Source of the DNA: Diphasiastrum complanatum | Taxonomy: Eukaryota; Streptophyta; Lycopodiopsida; Lycopodiales; Lycopodiaceae | Length of the DNA stretch: 64,000 bases | NCBI GenBank assembly: GCA_029204225.1 | Contig: CM055110.1 | Location: forward strand, 34,915,947 to 34,979,946 | Direction: 5' to 3' | Shown here: piece after piece, positions 17,806 through 61,904 of the stretch | How positions within the stretch are numbered: position 1 is the stretch's first letter | Layout of the letters: the number at the start of each line of letters is the position of its first letter | Notes under the pieces: generated by a model | What the model was told of the DNA's origin: nothing | The model's input: only the letters and a program-made list of their open reading frames with translations | Databases searched by the model: none | Translations under genes and position numbers: made by a program

Positions 17806-20800
17806 ATGATGAAGAAACAAGCTAAGCAACATTATAATACGGTCCTGAAATGGGAAAATTCTCCTCAAAAGATTGATTCAAAGAATGTGCCACCCTTACT
17901 GGATAAAGACAAAGGAAAAGTCGAGGATGATTCTACAAGTCAGAATTCTAGTAAGACATCATCGTCTCAAAAGTCATCACCTCCATGATCAATTCTTGCT
18001 AAGAAGGCTAAGTGAAGATCCAAGACAAGTCCTTTAAAAAAGGAACAAACAAATATAGTCCAGCATGATATGTCCGAGCATTTTAAACAATATACATTGG
18101 ATGATGTGGTTATCATGTTACCTAAAGCACATCGTGAACCTGAAGAACACGTGCCAGAATTGAAAGAGGTTTATGATGGCCCAACTAGGATGCAGCCAAT
18201 GAATCTTGATAAACTAGGAGAACCGAAAAAGATTGTACAAGTTGGATTACAACTTAATCCTGAACAGTATCAAGCACTCCGCATGTTACTTATTAAGTAT
18301 CAGGATTGCTTTGCATGGAGTTACCAAGATCTAAAGGGTATTCCGATGTCAGTTATTGAACATATCATACCTTTAGTACCTGATGCAGTTCCAAAGGTTA
18401 CAAATTTCTATCGTTGTAATCCTAATATTGCGGACCTGATAAAGAAAGAACTTCAGAGACTGCTTGATGCCGATTTCATTTATGAGATCGAGCATACCGA
18501 ATGGATTTCACCGATTGTCATTATTCTTAAGAAAAATGAGAAATTACGAATCTGTGTGAATCTCAAAGTGTTGAGCAAAGTGACGCGGAAGGATCACTTT
18601 TTGTTACCTTTTACTGAAAGCATTTTGGATCGCCTTGCTGGATCAGAAGCTTATAGTTTCTTGGATGGATTTAGTGGTTACAACCAAGTTAAGATTGCAC
18701 CTGCCGATCGTCACAAAATCGCTTTTGCAACAGAATGGGGCACCTATGCTTACAAAGTAATGCCATTTGGACTCTGTAATGCACGAAGTTCGTTCCGAAG
18801 AGTAATACAATTTGCTTTTAAAGATTATCTACAGAAATTTTTTGAAATTTACTTGGATGACCTGGGAGTCCATAGTACAGATACAGACCACCTGGATCGA
18901 TTGGAGAAAGTATTTGAAAAATGCGGCAAATATCAGATTTCTCTAAATGCAGAAAAATGTTAGATGTGAGTTTCCCATGGAGTTGTGCTTGGACATGTGA
19001 TATTGAGACATGGTATTGCCACAGATTATTCTAAGATCAAAATTATTGTGAAATTGCCACCGCCAACAACGATTCGTGGAGTTTATGTGTTTATGGGTCA
19101 TGCGAACTACTATCGAATTTTTATTATTTTCTTTGCGGATTTAGCACGACCTATATACAAACTTACTATTGTTCCTATTTGGACACTAGAGGCATTAGAA
19201 GCCTTTGAAAAGTTAAAAAAAACATTAACTTCAGCACCAATACTGCGTTCTCCAGATTGGACGATAGAATTTCATGTTCATACAGATGTCTCAAAATACG
19301 CCATTGGATCAGTTTTGACGTAGCCAGGTGATTATAATAAGTATTATCCTATACGATTTGCAAGCAGACAGCTTACAGATCCGGAGAGGAATTATTCAGC
19401 AATAGAACGTGAAGTGTTAGCCATGTTCTTTTTTGTTCGAAAATTTTGTCACTACCTCATGGAAACGCACTTTGTATTTTATATGGATCATCAGCCGCTA
19501 CTTTACTTGGTAAACAAGACATGCAATACTAGACGTATTGCAAGATGGTTATTGTTATTGACTGAATTTGACTTTCACATTGTGGTTCGGAAGGGCAAGC
19601 AACATTATCTAGCCGATTATGTTTCACGAATCGAATCCACACCAGTTAATACGAAAGTGGATGATGAACTACCAGATGCTGCATTGTTCTATGTTGAAGC
19701 AGTACCTGAGTGGGCAGCGGATATTGTTGAGTACCTGATGCTAGGACAACCGAATGACTCCTTGACAAAAGTACAGAAGAGACAATTGATTCATAAGGCT
19801 CAACCTTATCAATTGATTGCAGGACAATTCTATCGTCGTGGATCAGACAATATTCTACGAAGATGTGTTTTACCGCATGAAGTACCAGATTTAATCATGT
19901 TTTCACATGATGGCATGGGCGGAGGACACTTCTCTACAGATATTACTGTTTGCAAACTTTTGCAATCAGGTTGTTGGTGGCCTATGTTTCATAAAGACAC
20001 AAAAAATTTTATTCAAATATGTGATGTCTGCCAGCGAGTACGACGGCCTACTTGACAGAATTATGAACCCTTGCATCCGGTTTTATCGCAAGCACCATTT
20101 AAAAAATGGGGACTGGATTATGTTGGTCCAATTCACCCTGTCGCACAAGGATCTCAGGCCCAATACATTATCGTAGCAATTGATTATATGACCAAGTGGG
20201 TTGAAGCCAAAGTTCTCAAAGTTGCTGATGCGAAATCTACGCCAAGTTTCTATATGAAAATATTATAATCAGATTTGGATGTCCGATCGAGATTGTCAAT
20301 GACCGGGGTACACACTGCTTTTGTTATACACAGATTTAGCTTTCCCTACTATCCCAGAGGGAATGGCCAAGCTTAGTCTTCCAATAAGATTCTCTACACC
20401 ATTATGACAAAGACAATTGAAGCAAGTCAGTCTGATTGTAGTGTCATGGGCATTCAGAATCGCTTACATAAATAGTACAAATCAAACACCTTTTCAACTG
20501 GTTTATGGTCAAGATGCTGTCATGCTGATTGAATTTTTAATTCCATCTTTACGCATAGCAGCAATAGAACGCTTAAATGATGATAAGTCTTTACAGCTCC
20601 GTCATGAAGCATTGCACAAATTATGTAAAACTCGATTGATGGCAGTTCATGTGTTAGCAACAGAGAAAGCCCGCCGCAAGGCATGGCATGATCGTCGATT
20701 GCGCAAAAAGGATCTGAAACCAGAAGATCTTGCATTGATGTACAAAACCAAGCTGATCAAGGGAATGTTGAAGTTCACTAGTGAAGGCCCGTATAAAGTG

Positions 20801-24620: not shown

Positions 24621-24798
24621 TAAACATACACAAAGAGAAAAAAAAAAGGAGAACATTATAGAGGGCTAATCAAAACTCCAAAATCGTACGATTATATCCT
24701 ATTCCAGGATGTCACCACCCTCCCTATGGCGTTTGGACTTTCTTGTGGAACTTATCTTCCAACAAGAAATATTTGAACCATGCCTTTAACGGAACACG

Positions 24799-24895
24799 AT
24801 GACATCTGTTTTGGGACTTTGACATGAAAAAGAGTAATCTTTTTTGGTGTTTTTTAATGGTCCTAGTTTTAGGCCAAAATCATGGATTTTTTTAA
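24799..24895 (+). repeat. Left terminal inverted repeat
   Basis: Begins ATGACATCTGTTTTGGGAC and pairs with the reverse complement of 30610-30703, with a few indels in the middle. Confidence 0.65.
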
Positions 24896-25068
24896 AAAAG
24901 CCAAAAAATGCATATTTTAAATAAAGAATTACAAGTTTTTTGTTGCAAACTTCATAAAACCATCATAATTACAAATGAAATAATAATTCAAGAGAACAAA
25001 TGATTTTTGAAACTCGAAATTCCATCGAAATACAAAACAACTTAAATTATATTTGCACATTCTTTTTC

Positions 25069-26902
25069 TTAAAGTACATTTTCTGAGGAATTTTCACTGA
25101 TGACTCTCAATTCAGAACTTGACATATTCTCAACACTCTCGTTTTTAGCTGATGAAGTAGAAGACCCGTCTTCTTCATCAGAGTCAACTAGCATATCTTC
25201 CTCAAAATCCGCGTCTAATGTTGACAAAAAAACCTTGTAAATCAGCTTTTCTCTGTTGATGACGAGTGGAGGATGATGGGTTTTCCAGTAATCCAAGTCG
25301 TTCTTCCAATATAGATATAGTTGACTTTTGTAGATAATTGGTCATTGTTAATTCAAAATTAAATGCCAAAACATCTACATCATGTAGATTCATATTGTTG
25401 ACTCTTGGTTGATTTTTTGACAATCTCTTTCTCTTGCCCTTTGGATCTACTTGCAACATTTCGAGTTCGTACCTTCCCAAAAAAGCATTCTTGAAAGTGG
25501 TGCACAACCAATGGACACGTAGTACTTTCGTTTGATTGCTATTTTGAATAAAACCAAGTACTTTGGCAATCCAAAATGGATGTCCTTCATTGTTTTCTGA
25601 AGCTAGAAGTATAACAAGGCTTCCAATTTGGATTTCATTCAAATCACCGTGCCATTTCATTTTTGCAGCTTTTACAGTTTGCCTATTTTTCCTTGAGCCC
25701 ACATAAATTTCACGTTTTTCACCTTGCACAAGCTACAAAAAATTATTATCTCGAGGAAGATCTAAAGATTCAACAGTTGTAGTTAATGTTTCTAATTTAT
25801 GAGGCCAATAAAATTCTCCAATTGTTGATGTATATTCAGCAAACTGATTTTTTGTTTCTCGAAAAAGTCCATCCACCAATCTGATCAAACTCATCAAAAA
25901 TATGATAAGCTACTTGAATACTTGATTCCAAAAAATTCAATGAGGCAAATGGATCAATCTCACAATCTCTTTGTGCCGTTTGTTCTTCTAGCAAGGACTT
26001 TAAGGGAGACAACACAACAAGCTTGATTTGAGTCGATGGAATGCTAAGCAAAAAACAAATTCCTTCAAGAGGTAGTCATGAAACTGAATTTAAAAATAGT
26101 TTGCCCCATAATAATATAATGTTTGATTCGTTACATTTAATTTTAAACTGGTGTTGAAAGTTAATATCATTAATATTAGCTACGCATCGTTCTGTTTCGT
26201 TGGATGTCTTAACATAATCATGAAAATCATATGTGTGTCTGATTAATAACAGGTTTGGCTTTAGCACATACAATTTCTCAACAATGCTTTGAAGCACTAG
26301 TAAAGAAAATGCCTTTTGCGTCTCAACCTCTTAGAAAAGCAACTAAATATTTGATCAATTTGATCATGGGTATGTCCTACCAACAAAAATCCTTATTTTT
26401 ACTATTTTTTTTTTTAAAATTTCTCCACTAGCATGGACAAGTATGCCAAAATAGTTTGGTTTTTATTTTCCCTAGTAGTGTTGTCAAGCTACAAATAAAG
26501 TATTTCTGAAAGATTTTCACCGAATTCGTAAATTATCTTATGTACAATGGTGATCATCAAATTTGGATCATTTCGAACATTGGGATAATTAAAAAAGACT
26601 TTGGACTCCAAAGTGCCATTAAACACAGGTGCTCCAACGAGATGAACCTAAATAAAATCTGCCTTGTTCAAATTTTTAAGCACTTTGACAAAATGAGACA
26701 GTTTTCTTTTGATCCATGCCATCAATAACAAGATCCAGATATTTTTGTGGACATTCCAAACATTTTTTTCGATGTTTGGCCAACTTTTGTCTTTCAACTA
26801 TCTGTTGATCTCTGTTGTGCAGTTGAAGAGCTTTTGCATCGCCAGTGGACTGATATATCTATGTACTTTATCCTTAGCCTTCCCCATACACAGCGTGGTC
26901 AA
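25069..26902 (-). pseudogene. Transposase-like gene (DGMDQxKT / VGHTHxxIDQxFS family), decayed
   Basis: Reading leftwards from a likely acceptor (TTTTCAG, exon from 26902): RDQQIVERQKLAKHRKKC, then IDGMDQKKT (26700-26726), FNGTLESKVFFNYPN, a LYL-LDNTTRENKNQ block (about 26440-26510), and VGHTHDQIDQIFSCFSKRL (26326-26384, one base insertion). The C-terminal part has IQIGSLVILLASENNEGHPFWIAKVLGF, split here as IQIGSLVILLASENNE and PFWIAKVLGF (25.54-25.66 kb), which looks like a Tudor/SH3-type barrel segment, and an acidic Ser-rich tail ending at 25069. I remember these motifs from uncharacterised proteins now grouped, I believe, as DUF7869. The LDN and VGHTH acidic residues suggest an RNase-H-fold nuclease; this is inference. 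Stops near 26093 and 25733 and frameshifts show decay. Confidence 0.65.
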
Positions 26903-37488: not shown

Positions 37489-38020
37489 TCCCTTCCTATC
37501 TATTCCAATTGTAGAGATAATGCAATCCAAGTTTGCTTTAAATGCAAAGTTTTAGAGGAGGACATGATTCATCTTTTTTATGTCATTTTTTCTCTTTGGT
37601 GATCTCTTTCTAATAATTTCATTGCTAGATTCCATGTTAAATTTCAAAACTTTTTCTATTTTAATTTGATGCTTTATGATATTGTTTTTGTTAAACCTTT
37701 GTTGGCAAAGTTTTTGAGTGGTCTCTTTATGGAAGATTGACTAGCTTGATAGAATTTGCTCTACTTTTGTATAGAGTCTTTAATCTATGTTTACCCTTTT
37801 GAGAGAAATATAAATGAAAATACATGGAGATAAAAAAGACTATATTTGATTAAAAAAAAAACCAAACTTGGGTACAAGTGATGGCACAGAATGCTTGAGG
37901 ACCAAGACTATTAATCAAATTGAGTAAATGACATCCTTATGCTTACTCTTATTAATTTATTTCTTGAGTCAGTTGGTACACTTTGTTTCAACATAAATTC
38001 TAATAAAAGTATTGCCCTTA
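36961..38020. other. No gene recognised; (AC)n at 37448-37489
   Basis: Sequence between the tandem repeat and the copia LTR, with a 21-unit AC microsatellite. Confidence 0.4.
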
Positions 38021-38721: not shown

Positions 38722-38730
38722 CTCCTCCTC
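38722..38730 (-). other. Polypurine tract
   Basis: AAATTTGAGGAGGAG directly before the 3' LTR on the minus strand, typical of copia elements. Confidence 0.8.
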
Positions 38731-38931
38731 AAATTTAGCTTGATCTATTTACAACTCTCTTGATAGATCAATGAAAGCTTTTAGAAGTGTCTAAAAAATC
38801 CAGCTACAAAGAAGGAACTTTTGAGACTCCAATAGAGAATGATGTCCATGAAGGATCTTTCACCACCTCTTAGAGGATCCCTTACAAGATATTCCATAAA
38901 TGTGTCTATATACATGTAGCACACTTCAAAA

Positions 38932-40785: not shown

Positions 40786-40811
40786 TTTACTAGTGACTTC
40801 TACAAACAAGA

Positions 40812-41130
40812 AATAGATTTGATTGACTTGAAACTCACAAAGGTCTCACACTTGCAGTGTTTCACTCAAATTTGATTTCTAATCCAACAAATGGACTTAT
40901 AATCACAGTTCCATCACTCCCTCACAAAGCTGGAATGAAGATAAGATGAAGTGAAAACTACTTTCAAACAAATCTTGCCAAGAAATGGATTTGATTGTCT
41001 CTAGAAACTCACTAAGGTCTCTCTCTTGTAGTTTTTCACTCAAATTAGATTTCTAATCCAACAAATGGACTTATAATCTCAGTTCTAGAATGAAGATAAG
41101 ATGATGTGAAAGCTACTTACAATCAAATCT
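40812..41130 (-). repeat. Imperfect tandem repeat in the copia 5' leader (about 170 bp x 2)
   Basis: Both halves share GATTTGATTG, TTTCACTCAAATT, GATTTCTAATCCAACAAATG and GAATGAAGATAAGATGA. It lies between PBS and gag, where packaging and translation signals usually are. Confidence 0.8.
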
Positions 41131-41557
41131 TGCCAATTTTGGCTAGTTTTGGACAAAAAAATGACTTAATCTCTTTCTTCCTTCTTGGTGTACTTTCAAG
41201 ACCTGTTTTTAACCTTAATAGGACTTGAACTCAGCCTAGATTAATTAGATTCCATGAAACAAATTCAAATCTAATCAATGGCAAATGATCTTGGTAGATT
41301 ATCCTAGGATCTCCACCAAAAATGACACCAACAGCTCACAAATTGAATTTTTTTGGATCAAATGAATACCATGCATTAAATACAGGTTCAGAGGTGCCCA
41401 CACATGTGGACAGTACGGATTTGGACCCCTACCAAGTTTGGGATCAAATCTCCTCACCAAAATCAAGATTCTAGCTTGCCCTCTCAATACTAGTTTTAGC
41501 ACCAAAACTTGCTAAAAATGGATTTGCATTAGATCAATGGCTTATGCTCTTGTACTT

Positions 41558-41570
41558 GGCTCTGATACCA
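41558..41570 (-). other. Primer-binding site
   Basis: Minus strand TGGTATCAGAGCC, the exact plant initiator-tRNA complement, directly after the 5' LTR. Confidence 0.9.
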
Positions 41571-42271
41571 TGTGAAAGTACTGTACTTTACGACCATAAA
41601 TGGATCTACAAAAGATCCACAAGAGTGATTGGATGCTTGCTTAACAATCTATCAAAAAACTAGACACAAAAAAGTTGATCTAGATTGGCAATTTGACAAA
41701 CAACAAGCATTAACAATCAAAAGCATTGATAAACATTGAAATCCGAGCTCACACGTGTGTACTACAGGCTTTAGTATGGCCTTCAACCTGAGAAACAAGT
41801 AAAAATTGACTTGGTTTCATTTGGATCACAAAAACTCAATGTACATAGTGAACTAGCTTGAGATTGCCAATGAGCTCCAAAAATTTTCTATCTTCTCACT
41901 ATGGAGAGAGGGAATACATAGCAAATTCGACTTCCTTCTTGAAGTTAGGTGGATTTCCACCATGTAATAAGGAAGTTAACTCACTCTCCTTGACCTAAAA
42001 TGAAACCCTAGTCTATTTCCTAGAGTTATGCTTGGTAGGTAGCTAGTTGGTCAAATTTTCACCTTAAACTTAGGTGTAGGTCCTATAAAGTAGGGATGAC
42101 CACCAAATAGACATGACCAACTCTCTTGACTTGACCTAACCTACATTAGGATGGGTTTCCCATGTGGCATCATGGCCTCACATGTGTGGGACCCACTTGT
42201 GTACACAATTTACACTATTCTACATGGTTTTTGATCAAGCTAGATTTGCCAATTTTTGGCAATTCTTCACA
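41571..42271 (-). repeat. 5' LTR of the copia element
   Basis: 701 bp, near-identical to 38021-38721. It drives transcription leftwards into the gag-protease ORF. Confidence 0.92.
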
Positions 42272-45200
42272 CCTTGGACTTTTGCATCAACATTGTAGTC
42301 TCTTTTTGGAACCATTGAAATTTGTAAAAAAACTAACTTACCAATTTAAGAGAAAAAAATTGTAATATGCACTTGCATAAAAATTAGAGCATCAAGTGAA
42401 ATACGTAGAGTGTCATTGGAGTATATATTAGCTTGTTTTCTAACTTATGTCCTTTTCATAAAAGTGTGAATATAAGATGAGTAATCATTTGTAGAGTTTG
42501 GTTGCAAAAAATGACTAGTGAAGGAGTCTCAAAGTGATCAATTTTTTGTCTCATAGGGCACAAATCAGTTTGAAACAAAAAACAATATATTTGAGTGATA
42601 TTTTCCTTGACATATATATTTGATCATACTATTGTAGATTTTAGTCAATTTCAAAGTACAAAAGTTTTGAAAGCCATGCATCAATTCATATAGTGACACT
42701 TCTCACTTTTCTTAGACCTTAGAGACCAAATAAAATCAAAGTCTATTAGACAAACAAATCTAAAATGTGACTTTTTATTTTCAAAAAAAATTTAGGGCTC
42801 TTTTTGGAGTGACTAGATTAATCAATAATACTTAAAAAAATGTTGAAGTTCAAGTACTAATTGCCAAAAACCAAAATAAGTTAAAAGTGTCACATGAGTG
42901 ATAGGAAATTTGTAGGTTTTTTATGCTACATTCCTGATAAAATGACAAAATACACCCTTACATAAAAAAGACTCAATTCTCAAACTATGCAAGATCGAAA
43001 GAAAAGTTGTTGGAAGTCAAGAATATAAGTACCATTGACAAAGTGTATAGAAGTACCTAATTTATTATGTTTTGCTTGTGATGCTTTGAATTTGTACCAA
43101 TAATTTTTTGGTTTTGATTTAGTCGGGTTGCATCTTCTAGACGGATGGTGAAACTGAACTTTGTCTTTTTGTTGATGTTTTTCTTGATATTGAGAGAGAT
43201 GATTTCTATTTAGTATGTCTTATGTATCAAACTTTTGTGGCACTACATATCACATGCAAAAAAAAGTCTATGTACCATAACTAAAAGTTTTGCTCATGGA
43301 GTAACTTTTAGCCTTCAATTTTCAAATAAGAGTAACAATATTTGCACTTGAATCAAGAAATCAAAGAAAGAAACAAAGGAATCAATTCATTTTATGGAAC
43401 ATTGATAAAACAAATTGGCTGTATAAGCCATGACTAAAATGTATGTAGGTGACATGTTATTCTAGTAAAGACATTATTATTGTGAATACTTACAAATATT
43501 CTAACTTTTTTCAAATTGCTTTCAAAATCCCACTACCCAAATCATTTATCTCACACTACGGTATGAGACATTACTATATATGTACTCATATGGAATTGAT
43601 TTGACTATGTTTTGAATAGTGTAAAAAATGACAAACTTTTAAGTTAATATACAAAATATTCAAAACATAGAGTTTACTTTTTACTATATGTTTTGCTACA
43701 CTAAAGCTTGAATTTTTGTACATATCTTTGTAGCTCATATTATGTGAGCTTTCAAATTGCTATTTATTAAAAAAGATTATGTAATACTACAGACTTTTAA
43801 TCAATTGATTATATATGTAAAAGAAAATGTGCTATGGATGTCAAGTAGATCTATAGTTGCTATCGAAGAATAATCTCAAGTTTTCTAACGTAAAAAATGT
43901 ATTAAAAGAAAAAGTGGTTAAATAGGTCATTGTCTAGAGTAGCTTAACAATATATAGATTATTATCGTTCTTTTTTTCTCTCAAAAAAATTAACCGTAGA
44001 TTAAATACTTTTCACAAAGTATAGAGAAAAGATCAAAAGCTTACAAATGATAGAGTTTCTTTGCCTCCTTAAAAAGAAGCAAGGGGAAGATGACATAATC
44101 ACCATTCTTGAATTCCTTGCTATTTCTATCTATTAACCAAATATTCCAAATAGATAATCTTAATACATTGCCAATAACCATTAATAGCTGCATCCTCAAT
44201 ATAATATCGTTCAACAGATGTCACAGTGGCAAAACCTTCTGAATTTGATATGACATTAATATCTGTTGAGTAGACTTTTTCAAAGATAAATTATTATTGA
44301 TAAATGTGATGTTGCTTCCAATTATCTTATTGTACTTCATTTTTTCAACTAATTCAAAAGATGGATCTTTCTAATATTAATGAATAAAATAAGCAAGCTC
44401 TAATATATAGATGTCAAGAAGATAAAAATTACAAAAAAAATTATAGAATGCATATCTATCATTTGAAAAGAAATAGAATATGTAAATTATGTTAAAAGCT
44501 AATGGAAAGAAAAAAAATTCCAAAAGAAAAAGAAGATATTTACATTAAAAAATGCATAAATTGTATCTAAACATTTTGTTAACAAATAATTTGGTGTTGA
44601 TTTGAGTAAGTTTTGCAAAATAGATTGTGAGAGAACTAGTTTTCATAGCGTTTGAGATGACATTGTTAGTCTTTTTCAGGTCAGCCCTTTATGCACACTC
44701 CTACCTTCCAAATATGTATAGGTTGTAGATTTGTGAGTATTTTGCCATTTCATTCCCTGTTTCTGATGTTTTCTAGTTTCACAAATTCTGGCCAAGGAAT
44801 ATTGGTGTTCTTAGTTTAGACGACTCTCTTTTTCTCTATTTTTTTTTGTTTCAATATATTCCTTTTGAATTAACACACTAGTGCTAATGTGTGGACCCAG
44901 GTTTTAGGGGCCTGTGGACCCTATAGTGCCCGTATATTCTGACGGGACACAAATGGTTGTGTTCTAGATGAGGAAAAATGATTCAGAATCAATTTCTAAG
45001 CCCGAGAGGATATTCTGCCTCACAAGGTGCCCGTTATCCCTCCCTTTGTATTCCAAGAGGTTGGGCATAATAACCATTTTAAGACATAAATCACACTTCA
45101 TTCACTTACATCATGCACATGCTACTTAAAGTGTCACTCAAAAACTCACAACTTACACTGATGTGACGAACATTTTAGGCTAAGCACTGAACTCTATAGA

Positions 45201-51019: not shown

Positions 51020-52267
51020 GGAACTATCTTTTTTGTCTAGTTCGGGCAATCTTTATAGCAATGCCTTTTGATACAATCAGCACATTTAGCTACAAAATCA
51101 TAACTAAGTCTGCATTCACTTTGAAAGTGAGTGGTTTCTCCACATACAAAACATCTCTTTTGAAGTGTTGAAGGGAAAATGGCATAACTATTTGGTCGAC
51201 TTGCGTAGGTTGCTCCTCTAAATAGTATTGTTCACTGGAATAAGAGGCAAATGCCTCATCTACGTATGTGGTAGGATTACCATCGTCATAAGTAGATTCA
51301 TAGGCTAGAGTGTCATAGGTGGTATTCTGCACTACATTGGCCTGAACTTGGGGTTGGTTTTGCTAGTTTGGCTTGTTTGGCTGAGCAGATCCTCTTCGAC
51401 CTGGGAGTGCCAATCATTGTTCTTGTATAGGTGGTTGTTGTCTAGACAATTCCTAGACTTGGACTGGACTCATATAACGAGGGTTATATGGCGCTTGTGG
51501 TTGTCCTCATGGTGCATATTGTTGTGGTTGAGAGTATTGCATGTTGTGTGGGTTGTACCTACAGATTGATGTGGTATGAATTCTAGTATGACACAGTATA
51601 TAGTGCTAATTTTGTAAGGTCAGTGTAATGGACACTCATTACCGATATGTGTGCCACGACATTGTGGGCACCAGACATCTTCTTGCCTATGGATAGTGTT
51701 ACCAGATGGAAATTGCCCTGGCAACTGACTTTGAAACAAATTTAAGACTTGTTGAAATTCGTTGTTGAGTTTCTCCAAATGTTGTTGATGTTGTTGATTT
51801 ATCAACTCAAACTGAGATTTTTGAACTTGGTCTGAATCTCGGGACTCATTGGGATGATTATCAAGGTAAACATGGTGAGCTCTTTTCTCTTTCTGGTTCT
51901 CATCATCAGACCCTTCATCTTCTTCACGAATGGCATTGGACATGGTAGACTTAAGAGTAAAATACTCTTCGCTAGGTTTAAGTTCTTTCTGGATGCGTCT
52001 TGGAAGGCCAACTATAAACCATATGATTAACATTTTATCAGTTGGTTGTTCTTGGACTTGACTTCTGAGATGCTTAAAGTGCTCGATGTAGTCATGTAGG
52101 CGTTCATCTTTTTTTATTTTTGTATTACTAAGGCAAACAAATGAGCTTTCTGTGAGTCTAAAAGGTTGGAAGCGTTTAATAAAAGACTCTTTCAGCTCTA
52201 ACCAATCTTGTCGATCATCACGATCGAGGTTAAAAAACCACTCTCGTGCTTTGTCTACCATGGTCAT
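51020..52267 (-). pseudogene. Gypsy gag with three zinc knuckles (second family copy)
   Basis: From the ATG at 52267: KAREWFFNLDRDDRQDW and IKRFQPFRLTESSF, then DYIEHFKHLRSQ and WFIVGLPRRIQKELK form the retrotransposon-gag core, open for 215 codons. First knuckle CPQCRGTHIGNEC (51.63 kb). After stops and a Gln/Pro-rich stretch a frameshift leads to CFVCGETTHFQSEC and CADCIKRHCYKDC (51.04-51.16 kb). Knuckles one and three have the short CX2CX3HX4C spacing, as at 8.7-9.25 kb. No pol follows on the minus strand. Confidence 0.85.
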
Positions 52268-52289
52268 TGTACTTAATCTTCAACTTATA

Positions 52290-53110
52290 CAAGAAAAGTA
52301 CATTTTTATAATACATCATGACAAATAAAAATTACAAACTTCGTAAAACCCTCATAATAAAAAATAAAATAATATTGAAAAATAACACATGATTTTGTAG
52401 AAGTCAAATTCTAAAAAAATATATGAGGGCCCAAAATATGTATACAGAACTTTTTTTTATAATACATTTTTCAAAGAATTTTCACTAATGTCTCTCAATT
52501 TGGAACTTGATATATTATCAATGCTCTTTGTTTTAGATGATGAAATTGAAAGCCCTATCTTCTTCATCGAAATCAACTTACATATTTTCTTTTTAATCGG
52601 TTTCAAATATTGACAAGAAATTGTGTAAGTCGGTCTTCTTCGTTAAGTGACGAAATGAAGACAATGGTTTTCCAATTAATCCAAGTCATTTATTCTAAAT
52701 AGATATTGTTGAATTTCGTAAATGGTTGGTTATTATCAATTAAAAATTAAATATTGAAACATCCACATTTGTTAGACATAAATCGTCAATCCTTTATTGA
52801 TTTTTTTCACAATCATTTTTTCTTGCTCTCCAGATTTAATTGCAACATTTCTTATTTGTACATTTTCAAAAAAAATTAGTTAACATGGTGTGCAACACAT
52901 AGACCCATAATATTTTTATTTCGTTACTGTTTTGAATAAATCTAAACACTTATACAATAGAAAATAGATGTTTTCCACTATATTTAGAAGCCAAAACGTG
53001 CAACAAGACTTCTAACATGAAGCTCATTAAGATTATGACACATTTCAACTCATGTTTTTCTAAAAAAAAATTCAAACATATCATCTTTTTTCAAACTACA
53101 ATTTTTTTTT
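52290..53110 (-). repeat. Decayed copy of the TIR transposon's 3' coding end
   Basis: Aligns with 24900-25720: shared ATTTTCACTRATG, CTCAATT-AGAACTTGA, TTCTTCATC, TTTTCCA-TAATCCAAGTC and TTGCAACATTTC. Coding sense is minus, heavily shifted, with no TIR seen nearby. Confidence 0.65.
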
Positions 53111-53458
53111 ATCTTTCTAACACACTTCGCATTATTTGTGAACTATCGAATTACTCTTATGTTTGAAATTTTAAAATTCTTTATTTTAGTATTTATTGTC
53201 AACATTTAGATTTCTAATTATTTATTTATTTTAATAATTTAATAGTTTTTAAAAATTTTAGCTATTCTAATTTTATTATTATTTTTTTATTATTTTTAAG
53301 ATATTTTAAAACTTTAATTTCTTTGAAACCTGTAGAATTTTTTTTTTATATTTTTTAGATTTTTCAGATTTAATATTTTTAATATCTAAAAATTTAAAAA
53401 TTCAGAATTTTATTAAAATTTTTATTTTTTTTTATGTTTTTAAGTTTTTAAAATTTAC
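53111..53458. other. AT-rich spacer
   Basis: Almost entirely A/T runs, no coding signal. It borders the palindrome cluster. Confidence 0.5.
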
Positions 53459-53566
53459 ACGTTCGTTCTTTTGCTATGCTGAGCATAGTCATGCTATGTT
53501 GAGCATAGCATCATTGCTATGCTCAACATAGCATGGCTATGCTCAGCATAGCAAAAGAATGAACGT
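53459..53566. repeat. Near-perfect 52-bp inverted repeat with 4-nt loop
   Basis: Arms 53459-53510 and 53515-53566 differ at only two positions, and both would be G-U pairs in RNA. The loop is TCAT. Each arm contains two smaller palindromes of the form CTATG-N5-CATAG (53474, 53494, 53517, 53537), so the DNA can extrude as one long or four short cruciforms. No ORF spans it. Confidence 0.95.
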
Positions 53567-53601
53567 AGATGTTCCTTTTGTTGTAGCAAAAGTTCTTTGG
53601 C

Positions 53602-53735
53602 CATGCTCAACATAGCAGAGTATAATAACAAAAAAACTTATGCTATGTTGAGCATAGCAAGAACAACTTTTGTAGTGCTAAGCATAGCAAAAGAACGGAC
53701 TGAAAGTTCCTTTTGATATGCTCAACACAAGAATA
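53602..53735. repeat. Further palindrome copies and flanking AAAAGAAC/GTTCCTTTTG repeats
   Basis: One exact CTATG-TTGAG-CATAG at 53643-53657; degenerate copies at about 53601, 53673 and 53716. Blocks GCATAGCAAAAGAA and GTTCCTTTTG recur at both 53547-53580 and 53682-53715, showing that a larger unit was duplicated. Confidence 0.85.
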
Positions 53736-54161
53736 AGCATGAGTATTCTTTGCTTTTATCAACAACTATGTTGACAAAATGGAGCTATGTTCAATATTGT
53801 CTACTCGAAATTTCGATGGCTTTAACTCTACTGTGACCCTAACCTATGACTTTAACTATATTGTGACCCTCATCTACAAAACATGGTCCTAGTAAAGATT
53901 TGGAGACCAAGATGTGATAGGAGATCTAATGAACGGAAGAAAATCTAAAATATCGAACATGAAAAAAATAAACTTTAGATCTAAAAGATTCATCCATGTG
54001 TGAAGCATATATGAGTGCAAAATCATGGTTGAAAAAAAAAACAAACTTGAGAAGGGGTCTTATGGACTAGAAAATAAAAAAATTTAAGTAAAATGTTTGA
54101 AAAGGGGTTGAATGGTGAATAATAAGTTGAAGGGCATAGTTTTTTCAAATGGAAGAAACCG
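53736..54161. other. No gene; two palindrome half-sites
   Basis: Half-sites CTATGTTGA (53766) and CTATGTTCAA (53785). Otherwise AT-rich. Confidence 0.4.
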
Positions 54162-54210
54162 TTCAAAAGTTTTCTAATCTATGCTCAACATAGATTAGAA
54201 AACTTTTGAA
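54162..54210. repeat. Perfect 22-bp-stem hairpin, loop CTCAA
   Basis: Arms 54162-54183 and 54189-54210 are exact reverse complements ending in CTATG and CATAG around CTCAA. Confidence 0.97.
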
Positions 54211-54212
54211 AT

Positions 54213-54241
54213 TTTTTTGCTATGTTGAGCATAGCAAAAAA
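54213..54241. repeat. 12-bp-stem hairpin, loop TTGAG
   Basis: TTTTTTGCTATG and CATAGCAAAAAA around TTGAG. Its loop is complementary to the CTCAA loop of the neighbouring hairpin. Confidence 0.95.
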
Positions 54242-54384
54242 GTTTTGGAGTTTGCTATCTTCTATCGCCGCTCTTGATCTTTCTCTGAAATACGGTTCTG
54301 AAAATGAGAATATGGTAAAGAGATCTTGTTGAGAATGGAGAAGAGGAGTTGTGGACATGAAATACAAATTCTCATTACTGAAAC

Positions 54385-54605
54385 TTGCCATTGACAGTTT
54401 TCACAGAGTTGGTGCTGCTTTTGCTTGTGATAGATCATCTTGACCCGCTGCTAATTGTCAGAGGTATTCGAATATCCCAAAATATTGGTTTTGCTCTCAC
54501 CGTTGTAAAATATATTCTGAAAGATCAAGATATCGAATCAGAGAAAGTGAAAGGATATAGACCCTAGCTAGGGGTTTATAGGCTTTGGTTGTTTTCTGTT
54601 TTCTA
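54385..54605 (+). pseudogene. MOT1: Molybdate transporter (MOT1-like) exon, central part
   Basis: The frame LLIVRGIRISQNIGFALTVV, then KYILKDQD and GYRP aligns with the MOT1 signature around IPLxVVRGIQLxQGLxFA and AVKYIRKxQD, ending at the conserved RPWLGLDGL, where TAG stands for the Trp codon TGG and further stops follow (LGVYRLWLFSVF). MOT1 proteins are membrane transporters of molybdate in the sulfate-transporter superfamily. Only this part and the exon at 56.3 kb were found. The substitutions and stops mean a dead host-gene copy. Confidence 0.65.
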
Positions 54606-56305
54606 GTACTGATCTCTAGCAGCGTGGACGGCATGATAGAGAGAGGTGGCATGAAATAGAGATAGATCAACCACCCATTTTGATCTGCAAATGCCAGCAT
54701 CATAGCCCGCAATACATAGCACTCACACATTGGCGAACTTTCTGTTTGCAACAAAACATTGTATATTGGAAGTTCTAAATAGGTCGTGCTCTAAATCCAT
54801 CACAAACGCAACTGTTTTGAGGTCATCGGCAATCATATCGTGCTTTGAGTAGGCTGACTGCCTGGCGGATTTGAAATCCAGTACTATTTCATTAAATTGC
54901 AGTATTGTAGTTCCGAAAGTTTTACATGAAGAAGATGGAGGGCAAGATGCAAGGATAGGAAAAAAATTTAAGTTTGGTTCCTAAGGACACAACATTGGCT
55001 TGAAAAACCAAGAAATCACTTCTTGTCCAGCCTGGATTGCAATTAAAGCCAGCTAAAATGTGGCACTAAGTTTCTATGTAGCATTTTGTACCTTATATCA
55101 AGTATGTACAATCTAAGATAGAGCTCAACCAACTCCATTGGATGTAGATAAAGAGGTATATATGTTACTCAAAGAGGTATTATACATCAGGTGGTGTTTA
55201 TGTCTAACCAGACTTTCAAATCTCCCAAACTCTTGCTAGTGTCATCCTTGGAACTGGGGACTTATAGGTTCCCAATATTCTATTACTGAGGACTTGAAGG
55301 TTCTATGGCATTTCATGACAATCTATTGAATGTGTAATCAAGCAGGTAACTTCATTGCAAAATTATAGACTATTTATTGTTGTTTCATGAGCCCATACTG
55401 GGAAGTTATGCAAGTGAATGGCAGGGCTTTTTCCCGGGGCACTTGACTGCCAAATACCATTAGCATTGTTATATCAAAAGGAAGCAAAATCCTTGACATA
55501 ATTTTTTAGAAATAAAGATTGAAACAAATTCACTAGTTTCGAATGATTGAAGAAAGTCGTTAACATGTGCAGTGTGATAAAAAAGGATACGAAGTGCTTG
55601 AGATAAACTTTGTGATATTAGAAGAATACAAAATGTTTGACATGTTTCTATGATGTTAAAGTCTCAAAGAGTGATATCTTATCATGAGCAATAAATCTAC
55701 TTGTATTGTTGTGTTACAAGTTTTGTATGATCGGTAGAAGCATGTTTGTTTCACTAAATTGTTAATCTACTACCACTTGCTTGTCTCAATGTGACTAAAA
55801 ATTTTTCAAATCTCAAAACTTCAATGCCTATGAATTTTTATTTTGTTGCCTTTCTTGGTGTGATTTAATATGCTTGCATAAGCTGATTAACACCTTCAAA
55901 CACTGTGGTACACGTAAGATGGAAAAGCTCCAAGTAATTTGAGCCTTTAGATAATAATTGTTTATCATTGAACCTACTCCAATCCTCAAAAGTCAAGGAA
56001 GACATTGGGAGTCCATGATGACCATTTTCAAAGCAGGACGTCATGTTACATAGTACAATGCAATGAGATTCGGGTTGCTGTATGTATTGATTGATTATTA
56101 CTGAATTCAGTCCATAGCTCAAATCAAGGGTGATTGTGGGAGTTCATGATAACTGTTTTAGAGTGTTGTATACTTGATTATTCATAATGATTTCATAGTT
56201 TCAAAGCAAAATGTGATGAGAAGGTTAGTAGCTCTATTTGTCACTAGTTGTCATGCTATTACTCAATAATGAGCTACTTTATGGATTAAGAATTTATTAT
56301 TTGCA
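54606..56305. other. Interior of the MOT1-like pseudogene; no feature recognised
   Basis: The expected intervening MOT1 segments (PQIPLxxLNS and the loop before the AGQYRFG block) were not found, so they are lost, or this is partly intron. Confidence 0.3.
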
Positions 56306-56540
56306 GATGTTCTTGGCACAACAAGATGTTTTATGGCGAGTTGGCAGGCCAATATCGGTTTGGTGCAAGGTCTAGCATCTTAGTGGTCTTGTTAGGTCCT
56401 GGAAAGCTTGTAATTGGCCTCCTTTTGGGCAACTCATTGCTACAAGCTCTAGTCCCATTTTCCATAGTTACAACTTTCACCCAAATTAAAGCTGCAAGAG
56501 CTATATTCTCAGTATTATGGACTCATGATAAGGTCTAACT
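56306..56540 (+). pseudogene. MOT1: Molybdate transporter (MOT1-like) exon, later part
   Basis: After acceptor TTATTATTTGCAG the frame reads GELAGQYRFGARSS and LLGPGKLVIGLLLGNSLLQA, matching the MOT1 block GGLAGQYRFGARSG followed by GKLVLGLLFGNSL. LGTTRCF just before, in another frame, recalls the FGAMPxCHG motif, so a small frameshift is present. The fit ends after VPFSI. A membrane-type hydrophobic segment is evident. Confidence 0.65.
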
Positions 56541-57500
56541 GTGGTACCTTATCTTGTTAGTTGTAACAAACAAACGAATAAAAAAAAAACATACGTTCAA
56601 AAATCAACATACTTTTTAGCATCTCTCAAACTGAAAAACAAACATCTCAAATTGACACACATTTTCAAAAATCATTTCAAGCTAGACATAAAATGATCTT
56701 TACAAATTTTCAAATAGTAGACCTTTTTTTTTATTGTCTCGTATGCATTTCTGAAATACAATCAGTTTCAAATTTCAATATTCTAGTCATTACAAATACT
56801 CTTAAACAAGTCAAATATGTGTACTTTTAGAAATTTTTTAACAAATAACTTAATCTAACAATTTTCAAACCATGTAAATTACGTAAAAACATAACTACTT
56901 TTCTTAGGTTTAAGTTCAAAGTTTAAAATTTTGACATTAAATTAAAAAATATTTTCAAAATCAATAAGCTGTTTACATCTGAGTTTGCTCAATAAGAACA
57001 AATTTGGGAATGACAAAAATAATTGATAACTTATATTTTTTCATATTTGTAAATTATAACAAAAGAAGACTTTTTTAATGTTTTAAAATTTGTTTTGAAT
57101 TTAACATTCAAAATATTGGCATTTTTCAATAAAATTCCAACTTCTTCGAAAAATGGGTGCCTAGGCCATTTCTCTTTTTTTGGTCACTGTGTTTTCTAGT
57201 AAAACCAAGAAAAGCTGTGGAATAGACTGAAATCAGTATGTTGACTAGCAAAGATTTATGTGGCTATTCTCCAAATTGTGTGTGCTTTTTTCAGGACATC
57301 AAAGGCTTGCATGTGGAAATGAATCCATTTTGGACTTGTCTAGGGCTGTCAAAACCTATCCTTGAGTATTAAGGCTGTTTTTTGTAGAAGATCCGTGAAT
57401 AACCTGCAAAAATCATGCTATTCTCTTGTGGATAGTAGAGGGCTAAGGTCACAATATCTCTTCCATGAACCCCATTTTTGCTTTTCCTAAATCTTTTCAT

Positions 57501-57953: not shown

Positions 57954-58917
57954 TGAAGAAACAAAATGTTTCTAATGCCAAAGCTTTGCTAGCTTTCAAT
58001 TCTGGACCTTTGACAAAAGACGACACGACACGAAATCAGTCGTACTCCACAAACAGCCAAGAAGACCAGCCAAGTACCATGGGGTACAGTATTCTAATCA
58101 GATATCATGACATCTATAGAAGTATTCTAGATCGTGGCTAATGTGTCGCTCTTGTAATTCGCGATTAGTTGTAGATGTTTAATCTTTTTTAATCTATAAG
58201 TTACATGACGCGACATGAAAAAGTTTGCGAACTATATACTTTCTGATTGATGCATAATACTATAAGCAAGTAAGCAAGAAATTCAGAAGACAGTCCGCTT
58301 GTGAGCGAGACAATTTTGTAGAGGATCTGTAAATCCAGAAGTCCGCTAGTAAGCGAGACACAATTCGTGAGAGAACTGTATCTCTCTCACACCAACACAC
58401 TACGTGGATCTGTCATGCAGTGCTTGAAGAATCACGAAAATCAATAGATAATATTGTAGTTGTTGTGCACATATTAATCTGTATGATTGTATGATCTCGA
58501 AGATATTTTTGTCTGTTACTATTCGTGTGTCTGATTCACTTGTTCATTCAATTTTGCACATTTGTTTGATTTCGTTGAATGCTACATTAATCTGTTAATG
58601 TAGATCAGCAGTGTCTCTCTACTCTCTGAAGGATTATAGAAATGATATAGCTGGCAGTGACCAACAATCATATCGGAATTCCCGACGAACTGGTTTTATT
58701 TGTGAATGCTTTCGCTTTGCTTCGTGTTTCGCTTTGCTTTGCTTCACGATCACTTGGTTATAAGTGTAAATCAATTTCAAAGGCTCACTTAAGTTTCGTT
58801 TCGTTTTGTTTCGTTTCGTCTCATCTCGTTACAGAGCTTGATTGGTCTTGTCACAAATTCTTTCATTTTGTTTCGTGATCTATATGCTTCCAGCATGAAT
58901 CAATGTCAGAGCTCATT
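57954..58917 (+). repeat. 5' LTR of copia element
   Basis: Begins TGAAGAAACAAAATG. Shares with the right copy CAGTCCGCTTGTGAGCGA, ATCTGTTAA and TCGTTTCGTTTTGTTT-like tracts. A weak PBS-like ATGTCAGAGCTC lies at its end (about 58902), but the same string occurs in the other copy. Confidence 0.8.
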
Positions 58918-59448
58918 TATATCAGATCACAGGGGCTAAGCATTCAAACAAACAACCATCAATAAGTGAACACAAATTCAAAAGCAATGGCTTTAATCAG
59001 CAGCATACAATCCAAGATCTGTACAATTATGGTTTCATCAGGATCTAACTTTCTAGCATGAAAAGTTAAGACCTCGTTGATACTAAAGGGTGAAGGATTG
59101 AATTAAGGGAGAAAAATGACAAGGTAGTAGCCTTGCTATCATCATCCATAGCCTCACACTTGACCTGGGTACACTCTCCAAGGCAAAGGAGTTGTGAAAT
59201 ACACTACTCGTGAGATTTCAAACGAAATCATGCAGTCAAATAATGATGCTGGAAGATCAGCAAAGACCTCACTTCTTTTGTAAGGAAGATGAAGGATTTA
59301 TTCATTTCCCTACACAATTATGGAGCATAAAATGCAGTGTCAACAAAGAAGTAGCTTCTCACTTACCTATTGAGAGCCCTATCTAGATCTTTCTAGACAA
59401 CCAGAACCTTGCTAGCAAAGGATCCTACAATGACCCTCGAAAAGGCAA
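58918..59448. other. Copia leader, presumed
   Basis: Follows the LTR. ATGGCTTTAATCAGC at 58987 may start a decayed gag, but frames are too broken to follow. Confidence 0.35.
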
Positions 59449-59700
59449 TTGTCGAGATTGGAGAGGAAGTTGAGGCTAGAGAGCACCTTGATTACAAGGA
59501 TGCTTTTGACAAAGCCCTCTACAACAACAAGGAGAAGACCAAGAAATAATTCAAGCCTAAGAGGAAGTCAAATCAAAGGTAGGATCGTGATCAGCAAGCA
59601 GAAGAGAACAACAAAAAAAATTAGAATAAGGTCGAAACAGCAAAGTGGAGACAAGAAGACCTGGATGAGATGTAGACATGAAGGACACATAGTTAGTTTG
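59449..59700 (+). pseudogene. Copia gag remnant (basic C-terminal part)
   Basis: A Lys/Arg-rich frame ends in KKTWMRCRHEGHI, reminiscent of a zinc knuckle end (GKxGHI). Most of gag is lost and protease and integrase are deleted before RT. Confidence 0.45.
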
Positions 59701-60902
59701 TGATGGCTCAACCCAAACCCCCAGGATATGTCTCGAATTCACTTCCTGATTATGCATGCAGAATGCATAGGAGTATCTATGGTTTGAAGCAGTCAGCTCG
59801 ACAATGGTACAAGAAGAAAGATCAAGCTCTGAAATCCTTGGGATTCAAGCCATTAATGGCTGATTCCAATGTCTATGTGAGAATTAAAGTTGGGAAGATC
59901 ATCATTGTTCCTGTGTATGTGGACGACACTCTGATACTCTGCAAGAGTGAGAAGCTGATATTTGAAGTGAAGAATGACGTCTCGAAACATTTTGAGATTG
60001 TAGATCTGGAAGAAGCCAGGTTTTACCTTGTGTTGCAGATTGACATGGACTATGAGGGAGGTAAGTTGTACCTTCACCAGTCCAGATACACCCAAAATTT
60101 CTAGAGGATTTCGGAATGCTGAATTGCAAAGGAGCAAATACTCCAATGCTTGCAAGAACAGTACTGACGAACGAAAATTGTTCGAGGACTAAAGAAGAGA
60201 GAGAATTGATGCAGCTCACACCTTATAGGAAACTGATAGGATCATTGATGTACCTTGTAGTTAACACACATTTTGACATTGCTTATGTTGTGTTCAGGAT
60301 GAGCCAATTCTGCACGAATCCAAGCTCAACACATTGGAAGATTGCAAAATGAATTTTGCAATATCTTCAATTAACAAAGGATTATGGTTTGTGTTATTGT
60401 CATAATGCAAGATTTCAGATGCTTTCCTACAGCGATGCTAGCTGGGCATCTCTCAAGAAAGACTGTAAGAGTGTCTTAGGAGGATGCACCATCGCGCCAG
60501 GTGCAGCAATTCTCTGGGTCAGCAAGAAGCAGACCATTGTAGCTCAGTCATCTTGCGAAGCAGAGTATGTTGCAACAGCAAAGATGGCCAATGAGATAAT
60601 TTGGCTCAAACAGTTTCTGGACAAATTGGGCGAAACGAGGAATGAACCTTTGGTTCTACAGATGGCGAACACATCTGCAATACATCTAATGAAACAACCT
60701 GTGTTTCACTCAAGGACGAAACACATCGCGATCAAGTACCACTTGATTAGGGATCTAATTGGAAAGAAAATGCTGCAGACCACCTTCATTGGAACAAAAG
60801 ACATGGTTGCTGACATCTTCACAAAGGCCCTAGACAAAGGTCTATTCGAGAAACAGAGGAGTAGTCTTGGATTCGTCGAGCTATCATGCTTTGAGAGGGA
60901 GC
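59700..60902 (+). pseudogene. Ty1/copia RT C-terminus and RNase H
   Basis: RT: MHRSIYGLKQSARQWYKKKD, DSNVYVRIKVGK, catalytic YVDD in VYVDDTLILC (about 59917-59946), FEIVDLEEARFYL. Then LIGSLMYLVVNTHFDIAYVV. RNase H: YSDASWASLKKDCKSVLGG, SSCEAEYVA and NTSAIHLMKQPVFHSRTKHI, ending SSLGFVEL. The Asp of the usual DNxSAI motif is Ala here, so a catalytic residue is lost. A stop at 60102 and frameshifts near 60110 and 60353 break the frame. It belongs to the LTR pair at 57.95-61.9 kb. Confidence 0.9.
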
Positions 60903-61904
60903 TGAAGAAACAAAATGTTTCTAATGCCAAAGCTTTGCTAGTTTTCAATTCTGAACCTTTGACAATAGTGACACGACACGACATGACACGACAAAAAATC
61001 AATTGTGCTCCATGAACAGCCAAGAAGATCAGCCAAGTACCATGGGGTACAGATATCTGATCAGATATCATGACATCAGCAGAAGTATTCTAGATCGTGG
61101 CTAATCTGCCAATCTTGTAATTCGCAATTAGTTGTAGATGTTTAATCTTTTCTAATCTGTAAGTTACACAACGCAACATGAAAAATTTTGCGAACTATAT
61201 GCTTTCCTGATTGATGCATAATATTGTAAGCAAGTAAGCAAGAAAACCCAAAAATATTCTGAATACAGTCCGCTTGTGAGCGAAACAATTTTGTAGAAGA
61301 TTTGTAGATCTAGAAGTCTGCGAGTAAGCGAGACATGGTTCATGAAAGAACTGTATTTCTCTCACGCTAATGCACTGCGTGAATTTGTCATGTAGTGCTC
61401 AAAGAATCAAGAAAATCAATAGATAATATTGTAGTTGTTGTGCACATATTAATCTGTATGATTGTATGATCTCAAATGTATTTTTGTCTGCTACTATTCA
61501 TGTGTCTGATTCACTTGTTCATTCAATTTCACACATTGGTATGATTTCGTTGAATGTTATACTAATCTGTTAACGTAGATCAGCAGTGTCTATCTACTCT
61601 CTGAAGGATTGTAGGAATGATATAGCTAGCAGTTACCAGCAATTATATCTGAATTCTTGACGAACTAATTTTGTACGTGAAGGCTTTCGCTTCGCTTCAC
61701 GATCACTTGGCTATAAGCGTAAGTCAATTTCAGAGGCTCACTTAAGTTTCATTTCGTTTTGTTTCATTTCATCATGTTTTGTTTCGTTTCATTTCATCTC
61801 GTTAAAAAACTTGATTGATCTTGTCGCGAATTCTTTCACTTTGTTTCGTTTCGTTTTGCGATCTGTATGCTTCCAACATGAATCAATGTCAGAGCTCGTT
61901 TAAG
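60903..61904 (+). repeat. 3' LTR of copia element
   Basis: Begins directly after PPT GAGAGGGAGC with TGAAGAAACAAAATG. Homology to the left copy continues to about 61904, after which the left and right sequences diverge within a TTTCG-rich tract. Confidence 0.8.

What the first reader, a model, noticed from the sequence alone, without database searches (positions are those of the whole stretch)
53459..54241. Cluster of nested palindromes built on CTATG-YTSAR-CATAG, with a 52-bp-stem hairpin
Ten exact or degenerate copies of one palindrome occur in under 800 bp. Seven are exact CTATG-N5-CATAG with N5 always YTSAR (CTGAG, TTGAG, CTCAA or CTCAG). Four are built into a 52-bp stem with 4-nt loop and two mismatches, both G-U compatible; another forms a perfect 22-bp stem. 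Neighbouring hairpins have complementary loops (CTCAA and TTGAG). Flanking AAAAGAAC/GTTCCTTTTG blocks are also duplicated. This is far from chance and belongs to no element I recognise. Options: a new foldback/MITE family, a hairpin small-RNA precursor formed by inverted duplication, or a repeated binding site.
Basis: seen in the sequence. Interest (0 to 1): 0.88.

Follow-up and report, generated by a model that had tools for sequence, protein, structure and literature searches.

The report
Palindromic docking-site array inside a transposon
The hairpin-forming repeats are copies of a 15-letter palindrome arrayed in the non-coding middle of a DNA transposon whose left end occurs at least 290 times in this genome (probably a plant's), and they likely serve as a docking array for a protein that would help the transposon control itself or escape silencing.

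Summary
In detail: seven exact CTATGYTSARCATAG copies where shuffles give none, plus a 52-bp and a perfect 22-bp stem. It is no local accident: the genome holds 4276 exact copies, the reversed pattern 5. I fetched the 15 clusters that one search listed (first 15 Mb of one contig). Nine of 15 carry genes of one DNA transposon family: 5.0-7.9 kb, short inverted ends, equal 4-bp target duplications in 4 of 4 elements with both ends seen, 290 exact left ends. In 5 of 5 loci holding both 5' gene parts, the array lies between divergent genes, one with DUF7869 (presumed transposase), the other weakly like an N6/N4 DNA methyltransferase. Cores are conserved over linkers (9% against 24% divergence), spaced mostly 41-42 or 28 bp, mirrored into palindromes of about 440-520 bp whose arms evolve in concert, and nearly all outside coding pieces. 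Best reading: a self-recognition binding array that works like VANC motifs of Arabidopsis VANDAL elements, in a Sola2-like transposon. Protein binding and anti-silencing are inferred.

The parts
52270..57193 (.). Transposon copy that contains the cluster; about 124 bp of its left end are missing (joined to a gag-bearing retroelement), right end intact
   Evidence: Aligns with copy C (L015 and L030; 5016 bp, target duplication TAGG); right terminal repeat at 57193 (-)
52617..52997 (-). Decayed remnant of the part of the presumed transposase gene nearest the left end (piece T4)
   Evidence: tblastn 41% over 127 aa, 6e-21, to window 25205-25732 (-); DNA 70.8% to 24943-25639
53459..53566 (.). Hairpin 1: 52-bp stem, 4-nt loop, four cores
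   Evidence: in sister copy L015 its centre is missing (69 bp)
53474..53488 (.). Core CTATGCTGAGCATAG
53494..53508 (.). Core CTATGTTGAGCATAG
53517..53531 (.). Core CTATGCTCAACATAG
53537..53551 (.). Core CTATGCTCAGCATAG
53568..53695 (.). Hairpin 2: imperfect second inverted repeat with similar flank blocks (GTTCCTTTTG ... CAAAAGAAC)
   Evidence: Sequence and fold
53601..53615 (.). Core, 1 mismatch
53643..53657 (.). Core CTATGTTGAGCATAG
53673..53687 (.). Degenerate core (centre CTAAG)
53716..53730 (.). Degenerate core, 3 mismatches
53785..53799 (.). Degenerate core, 2 mismatches
54162..54210 (.). Perfect 22-bp stem around a core
   Evidence: a 462-bp gap in sister copy L015 starts at its centre
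54179..54193 (.). Core CTATGCTCAACATAG
54220..54234 (.). Core CTATGTTGAGCATAG
57182..57193 (-). Right terminal inverted repeat, AACACAGTGACC read inward
24793..26838 (-). Second, partial copy of the same family in the window: left end AACACGATGACATCTG at 24793, presumed transposase gene pieces on the - strand
   Evidence: the DUF7869 match itself was scored on L022:526-921
19742..19746 (.). Relative of the unoccupied target (in a gypsy element) into which copy C inserted

Best explanation
The cluster is a phased array of a 15-bp palindrome in the non-coding middle of a DNA transposon family, where it likely acts as a docking array that a dimeric protein, probably one encoded by the element, would bind as double-stranded DNA. 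Shown here: the element has inverted terminal repeats and 4-bp target duplications; in sister copies the array lies between two divergent genes (the window copy keeps only a remnant of one); single cores and small groups recur in gaps of the second gene that I take for introns; cores are conserved while linkers turn over; spacing is quantised; arms of the central palindrome are homogenised within each copy. Inferred: (1) a protein reads the dyad, because C and G interchange at its centre and one half-site is nearly always kept; (2) the protein comes from the element, with the methyltransferase-like second gene the first candidate; (3) the result is self-recognition, either control of the two divergent promoters or anti-silencing as VANC does for VANDAL elements; (4) hairpin or cruciform formation follows from packing dyads into mirrored arrays, and drives both the homogenisation of arms and the loss of hairpin centres.
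For: Genome count 4276 against 5 control. Target duplications AAAT, TAGG, AATA, TATT in 4 of 4 elements with both ends seen and a related empty site for one. Left end at 290 exact places, control 0; 4 of 5 exact left ends in the first 15 Mb of C1 have exact cores 1.3-4.6 kb inside the element. Array between divergent genes in 5 of 5 loci that hold both 5' parts. Core divergence 80/884 against linker 432/1796 between copies. In 110 array units, any change at G5 and C11 occurs in 8 and 3, of which C-to-T type 2 and 1; C-to-T type changes are 24 and 24 at positions 1 and 15, 16 and 20 at 6 and 10, never both at 6 and 10. The both-sided form CTATGTTSAACATAG occurs 48 times, about 179 expected from 53 exact cores. 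59 of 62 cores in three elements lie outside coding pieces, the other 3 at or near ends of translated pieces. Of 120 spacings, 53 are 41-42, 13 are 28, 9 are 53-55. VANC sites likewise lie in introns, intergenic and terminal non-coding regions as fast-changing repeats (PMC5735166, passages and section 9).
Against: No binding, methylation or expression data. Spacings 28, 41.5 and 54 bp are not all whole helical turns, and the window's own array is irregular (20 to 69). Gene readings rest on broken pieces: DUF7869 in 1 of 6 pieces of that gene scanned (the others cover other parts); PF01555 above cut-off in 1 of 3 homologous pieces scanned (28.1 against 26.7 bits). A ParB-like part that I thought I saw in gene 2 has no profile support. 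The window copy and L015 show no trace of gene 2. Four of 15 loci (L010, L014, L020, L023) could not be tied to the element; three of these have mostly about 28-bp spacing. One of 5 exact left ends checked has no exact core within 9 kb. Loci were found by exact cores, so core conservation is partly selected; searches used aligned or loosely matched units to lessen that. The 179 rests on 53 sites, many related by duplication. Between the two arms of one copy, core and linker differ less (15/221 against 45/449).
Confidence: 0.6

Rival explanations
1. Hairpin small-RNA source: the mirrored array is transcribed and diced, making siRNAs or young miRNAs that silence the element or host genes.
For: Near-perfect stems of 52 bp in the window and about 218 bp in L017; strong folding on both strands; paired variation inside arms.
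Against: The array lies upstream of both genes, so it need not be transcribed (inference). Isolated cores in three elements show no long stem around them by eye. Cores are conserved over linkers although pairing needs both alike. The centre is C or G in 86 of 110 units, either serving, as expected of a dyad read in duplex DNA.
Confidence: 0.15
2. Selfish DNA structure only: palindromes breed palindromes by template switching and conversion; the core is just the seed and nothing binds it.
For: Arms evolve in concert: 12 to 0, 21 to 1 and 26 to 1 sites. Two gaps in L015 start at hairpin centres. Mirrored linker order.
Against: Does not predict cores conserved over linkers, quantised spacing kept with unrelated linker sets, the shortage of both-sided changes, or single cores in separate gaps of gene 2.
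Confidence: 0.13
3. The core serves transposition itself (transposase binding, synapsis or an internal origin), not self-recognition for expression or anti-silencing.
For: In the loci with both genes it lies inside the element, beside the presumed transposase gene.
Against: It is internal, and no core shows in the terminal sequence printed. Gaps within a gene are an odd place for a synapsis site.
Confidence: 0.12

Closest known systems
VANC target motifs of Arabidopsis VANDAL transposons (PMC5735166: passages and section 9 seen; PMC10398659: abstract and section list seen)
   Same: Short motif multiplied in non-coding parts of a DNA transposon (introns, intergenic, upstream of the transposase gene), changing fast between families by repeat formation, units diverging together.
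   Different: Here the motif is a 15-bp dyad in mirrored, hairpin-forming arrays; it differs from YAGTATTAY and AGTTGTCC/AC; the element makes 4-bp duplications; no VANC domain was found in the pieces scanned; the second gene resembles a DNA methyltransferase. Binding and anti-silencing are shown for VANC, not here.
Sola2 transposons (PMC3627910: passages seen; Sola summary in PMC10741241: passages seen)
   Same: 4-bp, mostly AT-rich target duplications, short imperfect terminal repeats, multi-kb elements, some with extra genes.
   Different: Homology of the DUF7869 gene to Sola2 transposase was not tested; the passages seen do not mention internal palindrome arrays.
Foldback elements and MITEs (general knowledge; MITE size from PMC10741241 passages)
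   Same: Inverted repeats able to form hairpins.
   Different: Here the inverted repeat is internal, short terminal repeats define the ends, and elements are 5-8 kb.
Transposon-encoded methyltransferases (Mariner elements of viruses, PMC3627910 passages; retrotransposon DNMTs, PMC5890265, start of abstract in a listing)
   Same: A mobile element carrying a DNA methyltransferase or a gene like one.
   Different: Here the match is to the N6/N4 type (PF01555), weak, in a DUF7869 transposon next to a motif array.

Membership tests
DNA transposon with terminal inverted repeats | Inverted terminal repeats flanked by a target-site duplication of fixed length | tested here: met
   AACACGATGAC.. (one AATACGATGAC..) and AACAYRRTGA.. 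ends with equal 4-bp flanks in 4 of 4 elements with both ends seen; related empty site for copy C. For copy C a 5-bp reading, TTAGG, is also possible
Sola2 superfamily | 4-bp, AT-rich target duplications and short imperfect terminal repeats | tested here: met
   AAAT, AATA, TATT, TAGG (3 of 4 only A/T), about 11-bp repeats; yardstick PMC3627910 passages
Sola2 superfamily | Sola2-type transposase | not tested
   One gene piece matches PF25273 DUF7869; no Sola2 profile was at hand, and no paper held names DUF7869
VANC/VANDAL anti-silencing system | Short motif enriched in non-coding parts including introns and upstream of the transposase gene | tested here: met
   59 of 62 cores in L016, L017, L022 outside mapped coding pieces; intron status inferred from gaps between pieces
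VANC/VANDAL anti-silencing system | Repeats that differ between related elements and evolve together within one | tested here: met
VANC/VANDAL anti-silencing system | VANC-type protein (DUF1985/DUF287) encoded by the element | tested here: not met
   Pfam scans of pieces of both genes show neither domain; the pieces are incomplete, so an unseen exon remains possible
VANC/VANDAL anti-silencing system | Protein binding of the motif and loss of DNA methylation | not testable with these tools
   Needs binding assay and methylome
MITE | Short (mostly under 500 bp) non-autonomous element | tested here: not met
   Hairpins are internal to elements of 5016, 5967, 6931 and 7945 bp (coordinates)
Foldback transposon | Long terminal inverted repeats | tested here: not met
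   The palindrome is internal, about 23-49% of the way from the left end in the four elements (from coordinates); terminal repeats are about 11 bp
Hairpin siRNA or miRNA locus | Diced small RNAs from the stem | not testable with these tools
   Fold only; no reads available
N6/N4 DNA methyltransferase (gene 2) | Match to PF01555 above the curated cut-off | tested here: inconclusive
   P0003 28.1 bits against 26.7; L022 piece 12.6 bits; P0002 none; best solved-structure matches are adenine methylases at E 0.08-1.3

The most novel reading that the evidence does not exclude
A Sola2-like plant transposon carries its own N6/N4-type DNA methyltransferase together with an array of 15-bp dyad 'address' sites in its divergent promoter region and introns. 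The enzyme recognises the array and marks the element with non-5mC methylation, shielding it from host silencing. The mirrored arrays keep their dense sites by hairpin-driven self-correction. This would be an anti-silencing system that arose independently of VANC.
Probability: 0.25. Interest if true: 0.9.

Novelty: new variant of a known kind. Interest (0 to 1): 0.72.

Why it matters
Element-encoded anti-silencing with a repeated target motif is documented for the VANDAL transposons of Arabidopsis (PMC5735166). A second, unrelated transposon type with a more regular, dyad-symmetric array beside a DNA methyltransferase-like gene would let the generality of sequence-specific anti-silencing be tested directly. 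The mirrored arrays also record how long palindromes are kept in register and lost in a large eukaryotic genome: three copies show arm-by-arm homogenisation, and two gaps start at hairpin centres.

Tried and rejected
LTR or 5'UTR of a retrotransposon: the cluster lies near a gag gene (51620-52267 -), but no LTR pair encloses it, and the alignment with L015 gives other boundaries. Known RNA family: none in Rfam at gathering scores. Motif in print: the four 15-base forms occur in no paper held; two 12-base fragments occur in 3 papers on other subjects (listing only). Bacterial or viral source: the 19-base form has 0 hits in viral contigs and 5 in prokaryote contigs, about chance by my own estimate of 7. 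Protein relatives elsewhere: one gag relative, none for two gene-2 pieces at E 0.01. ParB-like domain in gene 2: suggested by eye, no support. A right-end-like sequence in L010 (4837) points away from that locus's array and is not counted. Open frames near the unassigned arrays gave no tie to the element. My note gives another spacing total; the table sums to 120.

Not done: genome-wide counts of DUF7869, gene 2, YTATGYTSARCATAR and CTATGCTSAGCATAG, because the genome search did not complete.

Full report
What is in the window. The region holds seven exact CTATGYTSARCATAG, degenerate copies at 53601, 53716 and 53785 and one centred at 53680. They sit in a 52-bp near-perfect stem (53459-53566), an imperfect second hairpin (53568-53695) and a perfect 22-bp stem (54162-54210). 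The repeat is best read as a 15-bp dyad, CTATGCT-S-AGCATAG, with C-to-T changes on one side or the other. The finding is confirmed.

Genome-wide. Copia and gypsy genes and a carotenoid-dioxygenase-like frame in L010 (my reading) suggest a plant. The exact pattern occurs 4276 times, its reversed control 5 times. The places that one search listed fall into 15 clusters in the first 15 Mb of contig C1; I fetched these 15 with flanks and no clusters elsewhere.

The carrier is a DNA transposon. The window copy (52270-57193) aligns with L015 and L030. That copy, C, sits inside a gypsy element whose uninterrupted relative is in the window at 18013-20928, with the break at 19742-19746. Four elements show both ends: B (L027 9549 to L028 292; 7945 bp; AAAT), C (L015 1763 to L030 677; 5016 bp; TAGG), L016 454 to L034 183 (6931 bp; AATA) and L032 1859 to L011 5825 (5967 bp; TATT). 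Each has the same 4 bases on both sides (lengths from the coordinates). For C a 5-base reading, TTAGG, is also possible. The left end AACACGATGACATYTGTTTTGGGAC occurs at 290 places exactly, control 0. Of 5 such ends in the first 15 Mb of C1, 4 have exact cores 1.3-4.6 kb inside the element; the fifth (4086436) has none within 9 kb.

Genes. A gene running from the array towards the left end has a piece matching DUF7869 (39.8 bits, cut-off 26); 5 other pieces of it matched nothing relevant. I take it for the transposase from its place; that is inference. A divergent gene on the other side has a piece matching PF01555, N6/N4 DNA methylase (P0003, 28.1 bits against 26.7). Two other copies of that piece do not reach the cut-off (12.6 bits; none), and the nearest solved structures are adenine methylases at weak E-values. 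By tblastn 9 of 15 loci carry pieces of one or both genes (L011, L012, L013, L015, L016, L017, L019, L022, L024). In the 5 with both 5' parts (L011, L012, L016, L017, L022) the array lies between them and they point apart. L018 and L021 share only array and flank sequence with these. L010, L014, L020 and L023 could not be assigned. The window copy keeps only the T4 remnant.

Array anatomy. In chains of three or more loosely matched cores, 120 spacings have modes at 41-42 (53), 28 (13) and 53-55 (9), that is 15 plus about 26, 13 or 39; shuffling the same 16 sequences in 50-base blocks, 20 times, gave one such chain. Linkers can be lettered: L024 reads a-b-c-d-e-f'-e'-d'-c'-b', L017 h-i-j-k-l-k'-j'-i'-h'-m, L016 m'-p-q-r-s-t-t'-s'-r'-q'-p'-m. 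The a-g and h-l sets were not assigned to each other; p-t are diverged relatives of h-l. Core and spacing are the same throughout. The mirrored order makes long palindromes: BLAST self-matches spanning 434 bp at 97% in L017, 441 bp at 94% in L022 and 517 bp at 81% in L016. The window array is less regular: 20, 23, 20, 64, 42, 30, 43, 69.

Cores are constrained. Between the arms of L016, L017 and L022, cores differ at 80 of 884 compared sites, linkers at 432 of 1796; between the two arms of one copy the contrast is weaker, 15 of 221 against 45 of 449. Among 110 array units, G5 and C11 are changed in 8 and 3 (of the C-to-T type in 2 and 1), while C-to-T type changes number 24 and 24 at positions 1 and 15 and 16 and 20 at 6 and 10; both-sided change at 6 and 10 is 0 of 110. 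Genome-wide the both-sided form occurs 48 times, its control 3, against about 179 expected from 18 one-sided and 35 unchanged among the 53 exact cores of the 15 loci. That sample is small and its units are partly related by duplication. The centre is C or G in 86 of 110 units, as for a dyad read in duplex DNA.

Where cores sit. In L016, L017 and L022, 62 cores with up to 2 mismatches were mapped. 59 lie outside coding pieces, which make up about half the length; the other 3 lie at or near ends of translated pieces. Outside the central array they recur just upstream of the first gene's 5' piece, after the first piece of gene 2 and in later gaps of gene 2, which I take for introns.

Dynamics. 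Had the arms evolved apart since the palindrome arose, arms in the same position would match between copies. Instead, sites grouping by copy against by arm number 12 to 0 (L017/L022), 21 to 1 (L017/L016) and 26 to 1 (L022/L016), columns with gaps and the first 18 columns left out. Arm identities within copies are 95.5, 95.5 and 80.5%. So arms are homogenised within each element. Between the window and L015 a 69-bp and a 462-bp gap both start at a hairpin centre, as expected if palindromes lose their middles.

Mechanism. A dyad kept in sequence, multiplied in non-coding DNA with quantised spacing while its linkers are replaced, is best explained as a protein docking array. In Arabidopsis VANDAL elements the element-encoded VANC protein binds a short motif repeated in introns, intergenic and terminal non-coding DNA and induces loss of methylation; the repeats differ between families and diverge together within a copy (PMC5735166, passages and section 9; PMC10398659, abstract). 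The present array works like that in anatomy. It is not a member on present evidence: no VANC domain was found in the pieces scanned and the motif differs. The short imperfect ends and mostly AT-rich 4-bp duplications fit Sola2 (PMC3627910 passages; PMC10741241 passages), but transposase homology was not tested. Binding, its agent and its effect are inferred.

Novelty. No paper held contains the 15-base motif forms or names DUF7869. Topic searches on palindromes and hairpins, methyltransferases in transposons, Sola-type transposons, VANC and a mixed one listed no such array. Seven of these eight listings were capped well below the number of papers found, and apart from the papers named above I saw only the listings.

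Noticed in passing
L020:3-965 (+), with a core array at 3031-3166 spaced 26-32 bp: A 321-codon frame that is open at the locus edge has a core-histone domain (PF00125, 2.6e-20) about 2 kb from another core array: possibly a second element type that carries a chromatin gene and the same motif.
   Followed up: partly
38020-42272: Young copia-like element on the - strand: direct repeats 38020-38722 and 41570-42272 are 98.4% identical, with a TGGTATCAGAG primer-site match next to one at 41560-41570 and a Pol_BBD frame between.
   Followed up: no
57954-61902: Copia-like element just right of the transposon copy: direct repeats 57954-58919 and 60903-61902 at 82%, with RT- and RNase H-like frames between (my reading).
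   Followed up: no
L014:2914-3832: Tandem array of long units (about 160-185 bp between exact cores), each with cores 28 bp apart; no tie to the transposon found.
   Followed up: partly
L017:6415-7038 (+): PIF1/Helitron-type helicase frame (my reading) just beyond the point where copy A stops matching the transposon.
   Followed up: no
window 54188-54649, against L015 3572-3573: The 462 bp absent from L015 begin at the centre of the 54162-54210 hairpin, a natural example of a palindrome-centred deletion.
   Followed up: yes
30528-30608: Small extra match to the DUF7869 piece (2e-4), a likely further fragment of the family.
   Followed up: no
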